A DNA stretch of 64,000 nucleotides from assembly GCA_020086605.1 (NCBI GenBank), contig JACBWW010000020.1:12311332-12375331 (forward strand). Reading direction: 5' to 3'. The stretch's first letter is position 1. Every line of letters starts with the position of its first letter. The stretch comes from Lanius collurio. Lineage: Eukaryota; Chordata; Aves; Passeriformes; Laniidae. The notes beneath the pieces were generated by a model. That model saw only the letters and a program-made list of their open reading frames with translations, was not told where the DNA came from and did no database searches. This document shows positions 11,590-64,000 of the stretch, piece after piece. The position numbers were made by a program, and so were the translations under genes.

Positions 11590-12907
11590 TGTCATGGTTT
11601 GACACTGGCCCAAAGCCAGGTGCCCACAAGAGTCATTCACTCACCCTCACCTGCCACAGCTGGGCAGAGGACGGAAAAGGAAAAAAAATTAACAAAAAAT
11701 TAAAAATTAATACATGAGTGAAATAAGCACCAGGAGAAACACTTCAAGGGCGAAACAGGCTCAACTTAAGTTATGAAGTGAATTTATTACTACCAGAATC
11801 TGAGGAGGATAATGAGAAGTAAAATAAGCCCTTAGAACACCTTCCCCCTCAGCCCCTCCCCCCTTCCCACCGACAGCGCAGGAAGACAGGGCACAGGGGT
11901 TTGGTCAGTCCATCACTGAGATTTCCTTCTGCTGCTCCAGAAGGAAAGTGAGCATCTGTGAGGCCGTGGGTCTGTCCTACAGGACACGGTTCTGAACTTC
12001 CCCAGGGTGGGTCCGCTCCCAGGAGCAGCAGCCACTGCCCCTGCAGCAGCGTGAGCCCCTCCCATAGCACAGAGCCCTCCCAAACCTGCCGTGAGCCCCT
12101 CCCAGGGCACAGAGCCCTCCAAACCTGCCGTGAGCCCCTCCCAGGGCACACAGCTCCCCAAAACTGCTGTAAGGTGAGCCCCTCCCGGGGCACACAGCCC
12201 TCCGAAACCTGCCGTGAGCCCCTGCCAGGGCACAGAGCCCTCCCAAACCTGCCGTGAGACCCTCCCAGGGCACAGAGCCCTCCCAAACCTGCCGTGAGCC
12301 CCTCCCAGGGCACAGAGCCCTCCCCAAACTGCTGTCCCTGGCTCTCTCTTCCCTCGGGTGCAGTCCCCCAAGGACAGGCTGCTCTAGCCTGGAAGCAGGC
12401 CCTCTCTCTCCACTGGGTCTCCCACAGGATCACAGCCTCCTCCAGGCATCCCCCCGCTCCGGTGTGAGCACCTCCCCACGGGCTGTGGATGGATTCCTGT
12501 ATCCCCCATGGACCCATGGGCTGCAGGAGGACAACCTCCTTCACCATGGTCTGCACCTCAGCCTGCAGAGGAATCGGCTCCGGCGCCTGGAGCACCTCCT
12601 GCCCCTCCTTCTTCACTGACCTTGGTGTCTCCATGTTGTTTTCCCTCACACTTTCTCACCTCCTCCTCTTCTCTGACTAGAATCCAAAACCTTGTCACTT
12701 TAATTTGATTTTCTTCTTAAATATGTCATCACAGAGGCATTACCAGCCTCTCTCATTTGCCTAGTTTTGGCCAGCAGCATGTACATCTTCAGAGCCATTA
12801 GCCATTGGCTCTGCTGGACATGGTGGGAAGCTTCCAGCAGCTTCCTCACAGGAGCCAGCTTTGTATCCCTCCTGCTACCTAAAACCAGGCTATGCTAAAC
12901 CAGTACA
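11590..12907 (-). mobile_element. ERVL-type solo LTR with internal tandem repeats, minus strand
   Basis: The plus strand begins TGTCATGGTTTGACACTGGC at 11590, the antisense 3' terminus of a widespread avian endogenous-retrovirus LTR family, and ends CCAGTACA at 12907. It therefore has TG...CA ends over about 1,318 bp. Flanks are AGGGT (11585-11589) and GGGGT (12908-12912), a 5-bp target-site duplication with one mismatch. On the minus strand an AATAAA signal lies at 11783-11788. No internal retroviral genes are present, so it is a solo LTR. The 266-codon minus frame at 11849-12649 is a by-product of the GC-rich repeats inside it. Confidence 0.85.
12051..12335. repeat. Seven-unit tandem array of about 40 bp inside the ERVL LTR
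   Basis: Units start with GTGAG(C/A)CCCT at 12051, 12091, 12130, 12174, 12214, 12254 and 12294. Each continues CCCAGGGCACAGAGCCCTCC and ends AAACCTGCC or a variant. Unit 3 carries a short insertion and units 3 and 7 share an AAACTGCTGT end. On the element's sense strand the array lies upstream of the AATAAA, that is in U3, where repeated units often act as enhancers. That role is inference. Confidence 0.95.
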
Positions 12908-48564: not shown

Positions 48565-49534
48565 TTAACTAAAACTGGTTTAGACACAGTTCTGTTTTCC
48601 AGCTGAACGAAAACAAAGGTTAGCATGAAGCAGCTGCACATCCAGGACGAAGGTTTAAGAAACAAAGATAGTATCATCTAACTATTTTAAAATTCATACT
48701 GTACCAATGAAAGAATCCTTGAGCTGCAGAAAAAGATTTTTGGAAAATAAAGTCTGTTTTTCCCAGAACTACTTTATAATGAATACCATGCTCCATGTAA
48801 AGAGCTAAACCTAAAAATAATGAAAGCACCAAAATTAAAATCAAACAAGACCACTGATAAGAAGCTCAAAACCAGAAAACCTTGTACCATCATGACAAAA
48901 TACTAGCTGACAGACACAAGGCATATTTGGAAGAAAACAATACCTCTTTCTCACCATGAGGGGAGAAGTAATGGGAGATTTTTGCCTTCTCATTCATAAG
49001 AGAATTAACTCCTCCTTTTCATTTTTCTTTTTGTTTCTAGAAAAAAATCCCTCCAACTGTAGTTCACTTTCTACATGAAGCAGGAGAGAAAAGAAAGTGG
49101 TGGCAGGAGATTGTTTTCTTCCATCATAACTCTTACAGCTTAATACACACAACAAAACAGGCCCTAGACATCCTGAAGCTAAACTTCAGGTCATTCACCT
49201 CTGCTGTTTGCAGAATTATATGCCAACTCAGGTGAAAAAGGATAAAAAGACAAAATAGTTTCACAGATGATGTGAGCAGGAGAACACACCAAAGTGGCTC
49301 AAATAAAGCTATCTTGCTCAGCTTCGGAGGTCAGTCTTTTCATCTTGGTCTATAGATAGTAAGATTCCCTGGGAATGCTGCCAGGGAAAATAGAAGCACC
49401 AAAGTTTAAAAGAGAAAAATGTTTAAAAAATCACAGCTAGCTAATCACTTCTGAGGCAGAATGCAGAAAACTTTCCCCGAGAAAATCTTGAAGCAATAAT
49501 AGACTTAACGAATTTCTAGTTTTTTACCTATTTC

Positions 49535-49827
49535 TGTTGTAGTGCGGGGAATCCTTACAACACCATATAAGACAGCGATGGACTTGGAAGGACAGATGAA
49601 GCGGTATTTTTGTAGATGTTCAGGGATGATTTTATTTCTCCAGACGCAGGGCTGGAGTTCCCAAGCAGACTCCTGGGACCCTGCTCTCTCCTAGAGCCCC
49701 CAGGCACCCCAAACCACCCAATCAGGAACAGGTATGGGGCACACGTGACATGGGGACAGGGACAGGGACAGACTGGTACCCTTCAGGGTCCCTCCCCCTG
49801 GGACTTCAGGGGAGAGGCACCTCCACA
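49535..49827 (-). repeat. 3' LTR of the CSD provirus
   Basis: A direct repeat of the LTR at 51650-51942, with 16 differences over 293 aligned bases and no indel. On the minus strand it begins TGTGGAGGTGCC and ends CACTACAACA, with an AATAAA signal at 49631-49636 and a CTGATTGG motif at 49718-49725. I see no clear TATA box. Confidence 0.93.
49718..49725 (-). promoter_or_regulatory. Y-box / inverted CCAAT motif in the 3' LTR
   Basis: The minus strand reads CTGATTGG, the core recognised by NF-Y and historically by Y-box proteins. The identical motif sits at the same place in the other LTR. Confidence 0.6.
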
Positions 49828-49832
49828 ATACA

Positions 49833-49841
49833 CCCTTTCTT
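49833..49841 (-). other. Candidate polypurine tract
   Basis: The minus strand reads AAGAAAGGG five bases before the 3' LTR begins. Retroviruses prime plus-strand DNA synthesis from such a tract. The five-base gap is slightly unusual, so this is a candidate only. Confidence 0.5.
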
Positions 49842-50052
49842 ATTAAATAAAATAACATGGGAAATAGTTAGATAAACAACAAAACAATTTGAAAGGCAAG
49901 GAAGCCACTATCTTGAGTCCCCAAATGTCCAAACAGATTTCCTTTGGAGCATCAGAAAGGAGACAGGACTTGAGCACGCTTCAGATGGAAACTGAGGAAG
50001 GGATTTTCCTTTTTGTACTTGTTGGAATCTTAGAAAATGACAGTTAATTTCT

Positions 50053-51285
50053 TCACTCCCTCCTTTTCATCCCCCTCATCGGCATTGCAAAGGGATTAAT
50101 GGCAAATGAAAAGGACTGGTTTTGTGAGGGGAGCCAGAAAGGGAAATTTGGGCTGGGTATATATGGGAGATAAAGGAGCATGGGATAAGGAGAGGGGAAA
50201 GGATAGGGATTATGGAGATATTGTCCAGCGTATCTACTACCTTTCAAAGGAGCAACCCCAGGGCCTGTAACACGTGCAGCCTGTGGGCCCTTCCTTCCTT
50301 GCACAATTTTAAATTCTAGTCTTTCTCCTTCTTCTAAGCTTGGAACATCACCTTTGGGGTTATTTTTTACAATAGCAGATTTATGGACAAAAATACTTTC
50401 TCCAGTATCGTTTTTCCCCAAGAAACCGTAATTTTTCTTTACATTATACCACTTTACAGTTCCAAAAACCCTAGCTGCGATAACTTTTTCATTTTTCTGA
50501 GTTCCTTTGTTCTTGCTTTCAGCTTTGCTTGCTCTCACATCAGAGCTGCCACAGCCAGGACCGCTGGGGTCGGGGCCACCAGCACATTCCTGTCGCAGGG
50601 TCTGGACTCCTCGGGATTGCGTGTGGGGCCGAGCGCCATTTGGCGCTGTGCTCGCTTCCCCTCTGGAGCTCTGTGTGACTGCTCCACGCTTTCCGGGCAT
50701 TCCCGCAGCTGCACGGCCATGCCCTGTGAGGCGTTCGCGTGTGCGCGGCTTCGTATCGCCGGCACTGCCACTGCTGCTGTCGTCGGCTGTGTGGCCGTGG
50801 GCTAGCACGGCTCCCTTCTCACCCCCATGCCCCTCTGGCTCTGCTCGGCGTGGCTCACCACAGTCGCCATAGCGACTGCCACAATTGCCGCTGCCTTTCT
50901 CACTGTGGGGCTCAGACTGTCGCTCACCACACGGCGCGGGGCGGCCATCACCGGGACACGCCTCGGCCGCCACCGCCCTCGCCACTGCCTCAGGGCGAAC
51001 ACTACCGGGCCTGCGCCGCCGCGCTGCTCCTGGCTCCACTCGCACTGCCTCCGGTCTCCCCGCCGGCTCTGCTCCCGCCCTGCCTGGCCTCACTGGCTCT
51101 CCCACTCGCAGGAGCTCCCTCGCCGCCGCCTGCAATGCACTCGGTGCCCACGGCTGGGGCCACGCAGTCTCTGGGGTGGCAGAGGAGCCCCCTGCAATGC
51201 GCGCGCTGCTCGACCACGTGTTCGCTGCTGAAACCTCAGCAGGACACAGCCCATATTGCTCAGCAGTCTCTGAAATCAGGTAATA
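50053..51285 (-). CDS. Captured Y-box-type cold-shock domain protein (open segment downstream of the in-frame stop)
   Basis: The interval is the whole open stretch after the TAA at 51286-51288. The first in-frame ATG is at 50700 (G at -3), giving 215 residues. The cold-shock domain lies at 50257-50490. It starts VIAARVFGTVKWYNV, keeps RNP1 as KNYGFLGKND and RNP2 as SIFVHKSAI, and ends ARVTGPG followed by GSRYA as in Y-box proteins. The nucleic-acid-contacting positions equivalent to Trp, Phe, Phe and His of YBX1 are all present with the right 9-11-2 spacing. RNP1 has Asn where Gly is usual. The domain runs without introns. The last 60 or so residues are Pro/Tyr/Phe-rich and end MKRRE, lacking the alternating basic/acidic islands of YBX1-3. 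The N-terminal part is Gly/Arg/Ala-rich and comes from CpG-rich DNA. Likely role: RNA or DNA binding. Whether it is expressed is unknown. Confidence 0.82.
   Translation of the reverse strand, partial: YYLISETAEQYGLCPAEVSAANTWSSSARIAGGSSATPETAWPQPWAPSALQAAARELLRVGEPVRPGRAGAEPAGRPEAVRVEPGAARRRRPGSVRPEAVARAVAAEACPGDGRPAPCGERQSEPHSEKGSGNCGSRYGDCGEPRRAEPEGHGGEKGAVLAHGHTADDSSSGSAGDTKPRTRERLTGHGRAAAGMPGKRGAVTQSSRGEASTAPNGARPHTQSRGVQTLRQECAGGPDPSGPGCGSSDVRASKAESKNKGTQKNEKVIAARVFGTVKWYNVKKNYGFLGKNDTGESIFVHKSAIVKNNPKGDVPSLEEGERLEFKIVQGRKGPQAARVTGPGVAPLKGSRYAGQYLHNPYPFPSPYPMLLYLPYIPSPNFPFWLPSQNQSFSFAINPFAMPMRGMKRRE
50540..51240. other. CpG-rich block inside the provirus
   Basis: About 700 bp, visibly GC- and CpG-rich, set in AT-rich surroundings; the gag remnant and the cold-shock segment on either side are AT-richer. 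It resembles the first exon and CpG island of a housekeeping gene, which would fit capture of a host 5' end. It leaves long open frames on both strands; the plus-strand ones (for example 50739-51365) are shadows. Confidence 0.8.
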
Positions 51286-51549
51286 TTAATGGAAATAGTC
51301 CTGCATCGGCATATTTTTTGATTCGGACATTAACTGTGTCCAAACATTCTTCCAAAAGTCCTTGATAAGAATCAAATCCCAAGAAACATAGAAGAAGTTT
51401 TTAAACAGCCATGCCAAAAAGTGTCTTAGCTCTTTCTGAGCTTGAACTAAGCTAAAGTCTACATATTGCTGTTCCCGAACCTTTTTTAGCTTAAGGTAAA
51501 TGTCTCTTTGTGGTTTGGACAGCCATGAGTCCTTCCATGAGTCCTCCAT
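51286..51549 (-). CDS. Gag matrix-like remnant, betaretrovirus type
   Basis: An 87-residue frame beginning at an ATG with a strong context (A at -3, G at +4), about 100 nt downstream of the 5' LTR, where gag normally begins. It reads SKPQRDIYLKLKKV near the start and DFWKNVWTQLM near the end. This fits the helical layout of the betaretroviral p10/matrix domain (Gag_p10 family): an early QLK-like helix, a hydrophobic FL/W segment, then a W-containing helix. The second residue is Glu and not Gly, so no N-myristoylation site follows the first Met. The frame ends with TAA at 51286-51288, yet the cold-shock frame continues in the same phase beyond it. Capsid, nucleocapsid and all later genes are absent. 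Assignment rests on pattern recognition alone. Confidence 0.65.
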   Translation of the reverse strand: MEDSWKDSWLSKPQRDIYLKLKKVREQQYVDFSLVQAQKELRHFLAWLFKNFFYVSWDLILIKDFWKNVWTQLMSESKNMPMQDYFH

Positions 51550-51649
51550 CGTTCAGAGATGGGACAGCAAAACGAAAGCAAGAAGAGATATTGAGAGTTA
51601 CTCATGAATTATCTTCTCCAGGGATCGTTTGCCCACATTCTCCACCAAT
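51550..51649 (-). other. Proviral leader with primer-binding-site candidate
   Basis: The 100 nt between the 5' LTR and the gag ATG. Two bases after the LTR the minus strand reads TGGTGGAGAATGTGGGCA (51630-51647), which starts with the TGG expected of a tRNA primer-binding site. I cannot assign it to a particular tRNA. Confidence 0.5.
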
Positions 51650-51942
51650 TGTTATAGTACAGGGAATCCTTACAACAATATATAAGACAGCAATGGACAC
51701 AGAAGGAAGGATGAAGCGGTATTTTTGTAGATGTTCAGGGATGATTTTATTTCTCCAGCCGCATGGCTGGAATTCCCAAGCAGACTCCTGGGACCCTGCT
51801 CTCTCCTAGAGCCCCCAGGCACCCCAAACCACCCAATCAGGAACAGGTATGGGGCACACGTGACATGGGGACAGGGACAGGGACAGACTGGTACCCTTCA
51901 GGGTCCCTCCCCCTGGGATTTCAGGGGAAAGGCACCTCCACA
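51650..51942 (-). repeat. 5' LTR of the CSD provirus
   Basis: The partner of 49535-49827. An AATAAA signal lies at 51746-51751 on the minus strand and CTGATTGG at 51833-51840, 82 bases upstream of it and therefore in U3. Fourteen of the 16 differences from the other LTR lie in the 123 bases next to the leader (the U5/R end); only two lie in the other 170. Confidence 0.93.
51833..51840 (-). promoter_or_regulatory. Y-box / inverted CCAAT motif in the 5' LTR
   Basis: CTGATTGG on the minus strand, in U3 of the promoter-bearing LTR and conserved between both LTRs. It could bind NF-Y or a Y-box protein; the element itself encodes a Y-box-type domain. Confidence 0.6.
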
Positions 51943-51948
51943 TATTTT

Positions 51949-61639: not shown

Positions 61640-62475
61640 ATAAAATGGAAGTCCACCAGAAGGTGACTCTGACTGATTAAACAAAACTGGGTAGAATAGA
61701 GAGTCTGCTGCACTGCATAAGTGGTTTGTGCAGCAATTCAGAGGGATCTCAACAAGCTGGAGACATAGGCTAACAGGAACCTCCTGAAGTTCACAAAAAC
61801 GTGCCAAGTCTTGCACCTGGGGAGAACAACCCCAGTTCCCCAGTACTGACAACTGACTGGCTGGAAAGCAGCTCAGCAGAAAAGGATCTGAGGGTCCTGG
61901 TGGACACCAAGTTGAACATATGCCAGCAATGTGCCCTTGCTGCAAAAGAGACAAACAGTGTCCTGGGATGTGTCAGGAGAATGTTGCCACTGCTAGTAAG
62001 CCCAAACCTGGGCTGAGTTCAGTTTTGAGTTCCTCTGTACAAGAGACACATGGTCATACAGAATCAATTCCTGTAAGGAGCCAAGAAAATGTTGAAGGGG
62101 TGGGATCATGAGGAAAGTCTGAGAAACCTGCACTATTTAGTCTAGAGAAGGCTCATATTTTGTTTTATTTGTGTATAGATCTACAGGAAGAGAGGGTGCA
62201 AAGGGGACGGAGTGAGGCTCTTTTCTACAGTGCTCAAGTAACAGAACAAGAGGCAAAGGACATCATCTGAAACAGAGAAGGCTCCAAATGAACATCAGGA
62301 AGTCCCTTTTCACTGTAAGAGTGACTGAGAACTGGCACAGGTTGCCCAAGGAGGTGGAGTCTCCCTCTCTGGAGATATTCAACAGCCATCTGAATACAGT
62401 CTGGGGCAACTGGATCTATGTAGCCCTGCTTGAGCAGGCATCTGACTTCCAACCTCAACCATTCTGCAATTAGAA
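61640..62475 (+). mobile_element. CR1 LINE, C-terminal ORF2 and 3' part, plus strand
   Basis: The plus strand contains AGGGATCTCAACAAGCTGGA, GTGCCAAGTCTTGCACCTGG and a frame with SSAEKDLRVLVDTKLN (about 61870-61920), all CR1 ORF2 C-terminal blocks. It continues into the 3' region: AACATCAGGAAGTCCCTTTT near 62292, then GGCACAGGTTGCCCAAGGAG. It ends near 62475 at TTCTGCAATTAG, without the usual repeat-like terminus. Interrupted by stops and indels, it is a dead copy. The left boundary is approximate. Confidence 0.9.
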
Positions 62476-64000
62476 GTAGAATCAAAACACACTAGCAAAA
62501 TCATGTAATAGTTGAATATGATTCAAAATTTCTTATCTTCCAGTAAAGTCACAGAACAGTAACTTTGAAAGTGTGGCAGTGCTGCTTTTTGTCATGTTGA
62601 TGGGTAGATCACATTTGTATCTGCAAGTATCTGGAAAGTTTAATTACATATAAACCAGAATCACCCTTAAAAATTCAGAAGTATGGAATCCTCAGTCTTT
62701 CCCATTCAGCTCTTCTCTATAGGCAAAGATGAGCAAATTAATAATGTGATCAGTCATCTGAAAACCCAGACTTGGATAAAACAGTGAACTAAATTAATTC
62801 AAACATCTTTAGCACAGTGCAGGGAGAGTGAAAGGAATAAGCAAAATCTCTAACATTTAACTGTAGAACTGGCTGTTTTTACTGTCCATTGTGATGAGTG
62901 AGAGGTGTCAGATATTCCCATTTATGGACAGCCAGACATTTTGCCCTCAACTGCACCAGTTCCTTTTTCTGGCATGTTTCGCCCATTCTCCCTGAGTTTG
63001 ACACGCAAGTAAAATTTGGACTGTGAATCTGTAACTGTTTAAGAACTTTTTTATGCTAGGGGAATTAAAACCACAGCAATTTTGAAACACAGACAGGAGA
63101 ATTCATATTAAGCACCCAATAAAGCTACAGTGAATGAGGTGAATACAGTGTCTACTTGGGTGAGATATCTCCACAACAAAAGGTTTTTCTCTGAGCTGGA
63201 AAACAAAGATGAATTAAAAATTGTGATTTTTTAAAATACCAAAAAAGGGAATTGATTTTCAAATTTTCTGCCAACCTCCCAAGGCAAGGTTTGCGAAGTT
63301 GCAGATTTCATGCAGTTTGTCCACCTACAATTAGCATTAATGGCAATAAATAACCTCTACTCCTATTAATGATATCCTGGAATAGCCATAGGCTCTATAA
63401 AAGTACTCCTTGAAGAAAAATAAATACAGATTTTAAAAGTAATCTGAGTTGATTGATACAATTATGCACAAAGCAAAGAAACAGCATGGGAAGGATCTTA
63501 AACTTCCAGAGGGGAAAAAGCCAGCAGCAAAAACAAAAAATACCACAAAACAAAACAAAAAAAAAAAACCTACAAACCAACCAAAAAAAAAAAAAAGAAA
63601 AAAAAAAAAAAAGAAAAAAAAAACAACCAAGGAAATAAAATTTTCCTACAAAAACCACAAGTGTAAAGAAAAATAAATATACTGATTTGCCTTGCACAAG
63701 TCTTATTAACAAGGGAGCATTCTTATTTTGAATCAAAACAATATGTTAGTACTCTCAAGCCTAGAAGAACTGGATTAAGAGGGATTTTGCATCTTAGTAG
63801 TCTCCTGAAGGAAAATACTGGCTGTCCAAGACCTGTCAGTGAGAACTACCATGCCAGAAAGGCTGAAATAATTGCTGACAATAACCTATGTCCCCAAACA
63901 AGACACAGAGAAAAGAGTGACAGAAAACACAGAATATAAGTAAAGGAAGACTAACCAAGTGGAAAAAAAGCCAGCAATGTGTCCTGGTGGCAGGAAAAGC
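62476..64000. other. Non-coding sequence
   Basis: I recognise no gene or interspersed repeat, apart from the A-rich tract annotated separately at 63530-63634. Confidence 0.45.
63530..63634. repeat. A-rich low-complexity tract with CAAA units
   Basis: Roughly 100 bases of A interrupted by C or G, including CAAAA repeats. Lys-rich and Phe-rich open frames on the two strands are artefacts of it. Confidence 0.95.

What the first reader, a model, noticed from the sequence alone, without database searches (positions are those of the whole stretch)
49535..51942. Compact retrovirus-like element that has captured a Y-box-type cold-shock-domain gene
Seen directly: two 293-bp TG...CA direct repeats, a near-identical 6-bp flanking duplication, and an internal minus-strand frame with an unmistakable cold-shock domain. 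Known: vertebrate Y-box genes are split by introns, and retroviruses can transduce spliced host mRNAs. Inference: a betaretrovirus-like element replaced nearly all its own genes with a host nucleic-acid-binding gene. I do not recall this element as described.
Basis: partly seen in the sequence, partly recalled or inferred. Interest (0 to 1): 0.88.

Follow-up and report, generated by a model that had tools for sequence, protein, structure and literature searches.

The report
Songbird retroelement carrying a Y-box gene
A small retrovirus-like jumping element, in what is probably a songbird genome, has as its only gene a Y-box (cold-shock) RNA-binding protein apparently taken from its host; a crow carries related genes, and one copy is probably the insertion already linked to the grey plumage of hooded crows.

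Summary
Two 293-bp TG...CA repeats (277 of 293 identical) at 49535-49827 and 51650-51942 have a 6-bp target duplication with one mismatch. An 18-nt tRNA-Ala-type primer site lies 2 nt inside the 5' repeat. Between them is one minus-strand frame: N-terminal domain, CpG-rich linker, Y-box cold-shock domain, Pro/Phe/Tyr-rich tail. One stop breaks it after the N-terminal domain.

It is a family, not a one-off. Three New Caledonian crow proteins carry the same N-terminal domain, linker and cold-shock domain in one frame; one of them represents a cluster of 24 sequences. A fourth crow protein starts inside the N-terminal domain. A Junco protein and an unnamed contig share the cold-shock domain and tail.

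The published 2.25-kb ERVK insertion upstream of NDP in hooded crows (296-bp LTRs) is probably a member: one genotyping primer encodes HPWFPS, an exact stretch of the crow protein's tail, at a fitting place; predicted length is 2.24 kb.

Not shown: that the N-terminal domain is retroviral Gag, which enzymes move the element, or what the protein does. Most likely it is a non-autonomous LTR element moved in trans, whose protein binds RNA. My searches listed no paper describing the capture.

The parts
49529..49534 (.). target-site duplication, left copy (TATTTC)
49535..49827 (-). 3' LTR (293 bp)
49631..49636 (-). AATAAA in 3' LTR (LTR position 192)
   Evidence: one search gives the position in the 5' LTR; the 3' LTR is identical there in the gap-free alignment
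49718..49725 (-). Y-box / inverted CCAAT core CTGATTGG in 3' LTR
49833..49841 (-). short purine run AAGAAAGGG, possible weak polypurine tract, 5 nt before the 3' LTR
   Evidence: seen in the sequence printed; not tested further
49828..50052 (-). 3' untranslated stretch (225 nt, longest A run 5)
50053..50226 (-). Pro/Phe/Tyr-rich tail (57 aa) and stop
50227..50484 (-). Y-box-type cold-shock domain (86 aa as cut)
50485..51285 (-). Ala/Gly/Arg/Ser-rich linker (267 aa); DNA 66% GC, CpG o/e 0.77 against 0.14 for the window
51286..51288 (-). in-frame stop codon that breaks the fusion frame in this copy
   Evidence: crow relatives P0001, P0003, P0007 and P0008 read on through this place
51289..51549 (-).
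51630..51647 (-). primer-binding site, 18/18 to the 3' end of tRNA-Ala(AGC), 2 nt inside the 5' LTR
   Evidence: tRNA recalled, accepted by ARAGORN
51650..51942 (-). 5' LTR (293 bp)
51833..51840 (-). Y-box / inverted CCAAT core CTGATTGG in 5' LTR
51943..51948 (.). target-site duplication, right copy (TATTTT)

Best explanation
This is one copy of a passerine family of compact, non-autonomous ERVK-like LTR elements. Each has a single gene: a fusion of an N-terminal domain of unproven origin, a CpG-rich linker and a Y-box cold-shock domain with its own tail, probably taken once from a spliced host mRNA. Shown: the LTR anatomy of the window copy; its uninterrupted cold-shock domain; the same fusion in three crow proteins, one representing a cluster of 24; shared derived residues. 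Strongly indicated: the 2.25-kb NDP insertion of hooded crows belongs to the family. Inferred: LTR-driven transcription, tRNA-Ala priming, packaging and integration by the enzymes of an autonomous ERVK, and a protein that binds RNA through the conserved cold-shock surface, most plausibly the element's own RNA. The window copy has a broken frame.
For: LTRs, TG...CA, 6-bp duplication with 1 mismatch. Primer site 18/18 at +2; every other window site has 5 or more mismatches. N-terminal domain 72-73% identical to the 3 crow proteins carrying it; all 3 have a cold-shock domain; P0007 represents 24 sequences. At 6 of 86 domain sites the six element-type proteins share no residue with four Y-box references; at 5 of these 6 sites at least 5 of the 6 agree, and the window has the common residue at 5 of 6. 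Four recalled RNA-contact residues (W, F, F, H) are kept in 6 of 6 element-type proteins and in Junco, although the six are only 56-79% identical to YB-1. Crow link: LTR 296 vs 293 bp; 2.25 kb reported vs 2.24 predicted; left primer encodes HPWFPS of P0007 (1 of 3000 null primers matched 6 residues); its place fits (602 nt, allowed 493-638); right primer aligns just after the primer site.
Against: No DNA of any relative could be read, so LTRs around the crow genes are not seen directly, and the species of the other members of the 24-sequence cluster is not shown. The N-terminal domain has no retroviral match. The right primer is weak over the whole element (99 of 1000 shuffles score as well; 2 of 1000 in the leader) and its protein match is at chance (4 of 6 residues, as in most null primers). 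By DNA the left primer is not distinguished (326 of 1000 shuffles reach its score); its homologous site is 13 of 20, and an unrelated site in the element has 14 of 20. The paper puts the inner primers in the 'LTR region'; here they fall inside the element, though the product sizes do not let the left one end within a 296-bp LTR. The repeat consensus lengths that paper lists as common (670, 1315, 2072 bp) do not match 2.24 kb. Selection could not be measured. The domain tree is mostly unresolved.
Confidence: 0.82

Rival explanations
1. Passive cargo: the element picked up host cDNA by chance; the cold-shock domain has no role for the element and the copies are passengers of LTRs moved by other ERVs. 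(This rivals only the functional part; it does not exclude the anatomy and family claims above.)
For: Retroviral transduction of host cDNA without benefit to the virus is established (recalled). The window copy is broken; 1 stop against 1.6 expected under neutral decay shows no selection on this copy after insertion. Self-RNA motif tests were unconvincing.
Against: The fusion is open over 369-440 residues in three crow proteins, and four contact residues are unchanged in the members found. In the window-crow pairs the linker is 38-43% identical, the cold-shock domain 57-60% and the N-terminal domain 72-73%.
Confidence: 0.3
2. Domesticated host gene family: the crow copies are now host genes (perhaps germline RNA-binding proteins) that arose from the element.
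For: UniRef entries for crow exist, one representing 24 sequences. Y-box proteins have germline roles (recalled).
Against: The entries are 'uncharacterized protein' predictions. The window copy sits between LTRs with a target duplication, and the probable hooded-crow member is a young polymorphic insertion, under 534,000 years by its authors' dating.
Confidence: 0.12
3. Nested insertion: a processed Y-box pseudogene landed by LINE activity inside an older LTR element, or two unrelated solo LTRs flank a retrogene.
For: The cold-shock domain is uninterrupted and 56% identical to YB-1.
Against: The N-terminal and cold-shock domains are in one frame in three crow proteins. Primer site and duplication are where a single provirus-like integration puts them. 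The longest A run after the frame is 5.
Confidence: 0.03

Closest known systems
corCorLTRK1b ERVK element of Corvus, including the 2.25-kb insertion upstream of NDP (PMC7341801; passages, sections 7 and 24; supplements not seen)
   Same: LTR 296 vs 293 bp; total 2.25 kb vs 2.24 kb predicted; one primer encodes HPWFPS of the crow family protein at a fitting distance, and the two inner primers agree on one orientation
   Different: The paper treats it as an LTR retrotransposon; 'cold shock', 'cold-shock', 'Y-box', 'open reading frame', 'gag' and 'ORF' do not occur in its main text.
Host-gene-transducing retroviruses and ERVs (oncogene-carrying avian retroviruses; HERV-K carrying FAM8A1), recalled
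   Same: LTR element with an intronless host gene fused into its own frame
   Different: Here the captured gene is a Y-box RNA-binding protein, no other gene was found inside, and the family has several members in songbirds
ENS-1/ERNI (Soprano) elements of chicken, recalled
   Same: Compact avian LTR family whose main product is one non-enzymatic protein
   Different: That protein is not a Y-box protein; no relationship was tested
TguERVL2 elements of estrildid finches (PMC6523648, passages)
   Same: A songbird LTR element reported to carry a foreign-looking domain (herpesvirus glycoprotein C-like) inside its gag frame
   Different: 6.4 kb with protease, RT and RNase H; a different domain; 'cold shock' does not occur in the text
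Y-box proteins YBX1/YBX2/YBX3
   Same: Cold-shock domain plus the following GSxYA motif; matches YB-1 and YBX2 at E about 1e-29 to 1e-28
   Different: 55-56% identical in the domain; tail Pro/Phe/Tyr-rich, not the basic/acidic repeats of YBX proteins (recalled); N-terminal domain and linker added
Retroviral Gag
   Same: N-terminal domain at the right place after the primer site; an RNA-binding domain downstream where nucleocapsid would be
   Different: No sequence or fold match to matrix; no capsid, zinc knuckle, protease, pol or env found

Membership tests
LTR retroelement / endogenous retrovirus | two near-identical LTRs beginning TG and ending CA | tested here: met
LTR retroelement / endogenous retrovirus | target-site duplication | tested here: met
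   6 bp, 1 mismatch
LTR retroelement / endogenous retrovirus | tRNA primer-binding site next to the 5' LTR | tested here: met
   18/18 to tRNA-Ala(AGC), tRNA sequence recalled
LTR retroelement / endogenous retrovirus | polypurine tract next to the 3' LTR | tested here: inconclusive
   only a short AAGAAAGGG ending 5 nt before the LTR (sequence)
LTR retroelement / endogenous retrovirus | own reverse transcriptase and integrase | tested here: not met
   Pfam on the two frames of the gene and on 10 further internal frames of 74-211 aa found no such domain; shorter frames were not scanned. Hence non-autonomous
ERVK / class II | 6-bp duplication | tested here: met
   the link of 6 bp with class II is recalled
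ERVK / class II | pol phylogeny | not testable with these tools
   no pol in the element
Retroviral Gag (matrix domain) | sequence or fold similarity to a known matrix protein | tested here: inconclusive
   no match in Pfam, PDB sequences or Foldseek; model confidence was low (pLDDT 65.8, pTM 0.28)
Y-box protein | cold-shock domain closest to Y-box proteins, with GSxYA end | tested here: met
Y-box protein | alternating basic/acidic C-terminal region | tested here: not met
   tail is Pro/Phe/Tyr-rich, K+R 7%, D+E 2%; the defining feature is recalled
corCorLTRK1b (crow ERVK subfamily) | sequence identity to the subfamily consensus | not testable with these tools
   consensus not held; indirect tests by length and primers agree in the main
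LINE-made processed pseudogene | poly(A) tail after the gene | tested here: not met
   longest A run in the 225 nt after the frame is 5

The most novel reading that the evidence does not exclude
The captured Y-box protein is a working part of the element. A matrix-like N-terminal domain plus a cold-shock domain standing in for nucleocapsid forms a minimal Gag-like protein that coats and chaperones the element's own RNA, so that it can be packaged by helper ERVK particles. It may also act on the Y-box core (CTGATTGG) that lies in both LTRs. The family is active in crows, and one young copy upstream of NDP contributes to hooded-crow plumage.
Probability: 0.22. Interest if true: 0.92.

Novelty: new variant of a known kind. 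Interest (0 to 1): 0.77.

Why it matters
Host genes in retroviruses are usually short-lived passengers (recalled). A vertebrate LTR family whose only gene is a captured host RNA-binding protein, present in crow and Junco lineages and multiplied in crow, would be a natural case of a retroelement exchanging its own genes for a host RNP protein. It also gives a likely identity to a plumage-associated insertion in crows that its paper treats as a 2.25-kb LTR retrotransposon. The crow part can be checked quickly by anyone with the hooded-crow assembly.

Tried and rejected
Whole-frame protein search: 7990 candidates scored, none at E <= 0.01, probably swamped by the low-complexity linker; restricting it to residues 258-410 worked (6 of 120 candidates). 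Three viral-contig scans found 6, 4 and 116 pattern matches, none a relative. The genome-contig scan gave 1 locus of 75 matches, in a gammaproteobacterial MAG (38%, cold-shock part only), taken as an ordinary bacterial cold-shock gene and not pursued.

Gag test: no match in Pfam, PDB or Foldseek; two AlphaFold jobs gave poor models, so Gag is neither shown nor excluded. A weak Pfam 'Vezatin' hit (best E 0.01, 3 of 4 members) and a laminin hit (E 0.2) were taken as chance, as was PMAIP1 (E 0.94).

CAUC/CACC motif test for self-RNA binding: CATC mildly high in LTR plus leader (4 vs 1.7 expected; 41 of 500 shuffles reach it), in the LTR alone (3 vs 1.1; 44 of 500) and in 3'UTR plus LTR (5 vs 1.9; 14 of 500), not in the whole element (9 vs 7.8; 197 of 500). 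CACC is scarce in the sense strand (2 vs 7.8; 499 of 500). Not convincing.

Which Y-box gene was the source: YB-1 and YBX2 score nearly alike; the tree has 1 starred inner branch of 8. Unresolved. Age from LTR divergence (K2P 0.057) is shaky: 11 of 16 differences lie in the last 63 nt and a 146-nt block is identical (P 0.00015), which suggests recombination. Assumed rates of 2e-9 to 3.3e-9 give 9-14 My; the crow paper's rate would give about 1.8 My by hand.

Pfam on 7 of the 56 frames of 85 aa or more that one search lists outside the element found nothing; Rfam and ARAGORN found nothing in the window. The window's species was not identified. Papers PMC6523648 and PMC7757076 were seen as passages only; 'cold shock' does not occur in the first, 'cold' not in the second, 'host gene' in neither. 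Paper searches listed nothing on the capture.

Full report
1. Observation. The two direct repeats are at exactly the stated coordinates, 49535-49827 and 51650-51942, 293 nt each, 277 of 293 identical without gaps; blastn found no further copy in the window. Read on the minus strand they begin TGTGG and end AACA. The outer flanks are TATTTC and TATTTT, a 6-bp duplication with one mismatch. The minus-strand frame 50053-51285 (410 aa) has a cold-shock domain (Pfam PF00313, E=1.3e-19) whose best PDB matches are Y-box proteins (zebrafish YB-1 E=1.5e-29, YBX2 E=1.6e-28), ahead of bacterial cold-shock proteins (best E=1.4e-12). The species of the window was not identified; 'bird' rests on the relatives found.

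2. Anatomy. In the sense direction: 5' LTR; 2 nt; an 18-nt primer-binding site identical over all 18 positions to the 3' end of a vertebrate tRNA-Ala(AGC) (recalled, accepted by ARAGORN as tRNA-Ala(agc); every other site in the window, both strands, has 5 or more mismatches); a leader of about 100 nt; then one reading frame. The frame begins MEDSWKDSW, runs for 87 codons, meets one stop (51286-51288), and continues in the same frame for 410 codons. It consists of an N-terminal domain, a 267-aa linker rich in Ala/Gly/Arg/Ser, an 86-aa cold-shock domain and a 57-aa tail rich in Pro/Phe/Tyr. The linker DNA is 66% GC with CpG o/e 0.77, while the window is 38% GC with CpG o/e 0.14. Pfam found no pol, env or protease domain in the two frames of the gene or in 10 further internal frames of 74-211 aa (one chance-level hit, E 0.94). 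The element is 2408 bp.

3. It is a family. A search with residues 258-410 gave 6 proteins of 120 candidates: two of Corvus moneduloides (P0001, P0003), one of Junco hyemalis (P0006), two on unnamed contigs (P0002, P0005) and a fish YBX2-like protein (P0004). I take P0004 and P0005 as ordinary Y-box references. P0003 has the N-terminal domain, linker, cold-shock domain and tail in a single frame. A second search with only the N-terminal domain of P0003 gave 3 of 13 candidates: P0003 itself, P0007 (440 aa, representing 24 sequences) and P0008, all three named Corvus moneduloides, all with the cold-shock domain. So the N-terminal domain was not seen without the cold-shock domain, but this database is not a survey of bird genomes and the length limits of the search would have missed long Gag polyproteins. 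P0001 begins inside the N-terminal domain; P0008 ends just after the cold-shock domain; P0002 and P0006 lack the N-terminal domain.

4. One origin, then divergence and mixing. At 6 of 86 sites of the cold-shock domain the six element-type proteins (P0001, P0002, P0003, P0007, P0008, window) share no residue with four Y-box references. At two of these sites all six agree, at three more five of six agree, and at one they have R (four) or K (two). The window has the common residue at five of the six sites; Junco has it at three. Identity of window and crow proteins: N-terminal domain 72-73%, cold-shock domain 57-60%, linker 38-43%. P0003 shares 89% of the N-terminal domain with P0007 but only 64% of the cold-shock domain, whereas P0008 shares 88% and 84% with P0007; the simplest reading is recombination between lineages of the family. 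P0002 has the least derived domain (79% to YB-1) together with a family-like tail (51% to P0007 over 67 aligned residues). The source gene cannot be told (YB-1 and YBX2 score nearly alike; weak tree).

5. The crow insertion. PMC7341801 (passages, sections 7 and 24) describes a 2.25-kb ERVK insertion, subfamily corCorLTRK1b, LTR 296 bp, 20 kb upstream of NDP, fixed in hooded crows, dated under 534,000 years and associated with lower NDP expression and plumage. It also reports a peak of insertion/deletion lengths near 2.4 kb in the genus; the consensus lengths it names for common LTR repeats (670, 1315, 2072 bp) do not match directly. Four checks tie the insertion to the present family. (a) LTR length 296 against 293. 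(b) Taking a 440-codon frame instead of the window's 498 and the crow LTR length predicts 2240 bp; with 369 or 376 codons it would be 2027 or 2048. (c) Primer P_L_R_2 translates in its first frame to HPWFPS, exactly residues 415-420 of P0007; among 3000 shuffled or random 20-mers one matched six residues. Its place in the element, 602 nt from the outer end after adjustment, lies in the range 493-638 that the two product sizes allow, 6% of the element's length. (d) Primer P_R_F_1 aligns with 12 identical bases and one gap to the leader directly after the primer site, in the orientation that P_L_R_2 implies (2 of 1000 shuffles do as well in the leader, 99 of 1000 in the whole element; its protein match, 4 of 6, is at chance, as expected outside the frame). 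By DNA, P_L_R_2 is not distinguished (326 of 1000 shuffles; 13 of 20 at the homologous site, 14 of 20 at an unrelated one), not surprising at this protein divergence. The words cold shock, cold-shock, Y-box, open reading frame, gag and ORF do not occur in the paper's main text; supplements were not seen.

6. What it most likely does. Shown: LTR-element anatomy, a broken single gene here, unbroken predicted proteins in crow. Inferred: transcription from the LTR, priming by tRNA-Ala, and mobilisation by the proteins of an autonomous ERVK, since no enzyme was found in the element. The cold-shock surface residues W, F, F, H (positions recalled from YB-1 structures) are kept in all six element-type proteins and in Junco, so RNA binding is likely retained. 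Whether this serves the element is open; motif tests for self-RNA binding were unconvincing. The window copy shows one stop where 1.6 would be expected from LTR divergence under neutrality, so it gives no sign of selection after insertion. A Y-box core CTGATTGG occurs twice in the window, once in each LTR at the same place; inverted CCAAT boxes are common in promoters (recalled), so this is only a lead.

7. Gag or not. Its position and length would suit a matrix domain, but Pfam, PDB sequences and Foldseek with a low-confidence model gave no retroviral match. I therefore call it an N-terminal domain of unproven origin.

8. Prior description. Paper searches joining cold shock or Y-box terms with retrovirus, LTR, bird, zebra finch, songbird or Corvus terms listed no paper that describes this capture, judged by titles and the shown starts of abstracts. 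Searches found no paper; one search showed 20 of 174 papers and one search showed 25 of 33, none of the 25 holding 'cold-shock domain'. The library lacks most subscription papers. The family is probably known to repeat annotators under an LTR name, but I saw no statement that it carries a Y-box gene.

Noticed in passing
P0006 (Junco hyemalis, residues about 180-268): Between the cold-shock domain and a family-like tail (from residue 288) lies a stretch matching FCP1_C (PF09309, E=9.5e-16 for the whole protein; three pieces match in order, each below the cut-off alone). Either a gene-model chimera with CTDP1 or a second host-gene capture.
   Followed up: partly
window 49535-49827 against 51650-51942: LTR differences are clustered: 11 of 16 in the last 63 nt, a 146-nt block without any (P 0.00015); points to recombination or conversion and spoils simple LTR dating.
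   Followed up: partly
window 50485-51285: CpG-island-like linker (CpG o/e 0.77) in a CpG-poor window (0.14); may come from the 5' end of the host Y-box gene.
   Followed up: partly
P0003 against P0007: N-terminal domain 89% but cold-shock domain 64% identical: mosaic copies within one crow species.
   Followed up: partly
window 12050-12332: GC-rich 40-bp tandem array, 7 copies.
   Followed up: no
window 62216-62470: Frame that looks like the C-terminal end of a CR1 reverse transcriptase (recalled); Pfam gave no match.
   Followed up: partly
window 63528-63623: A-rich tract of about 95 bp.
   Followed up: no
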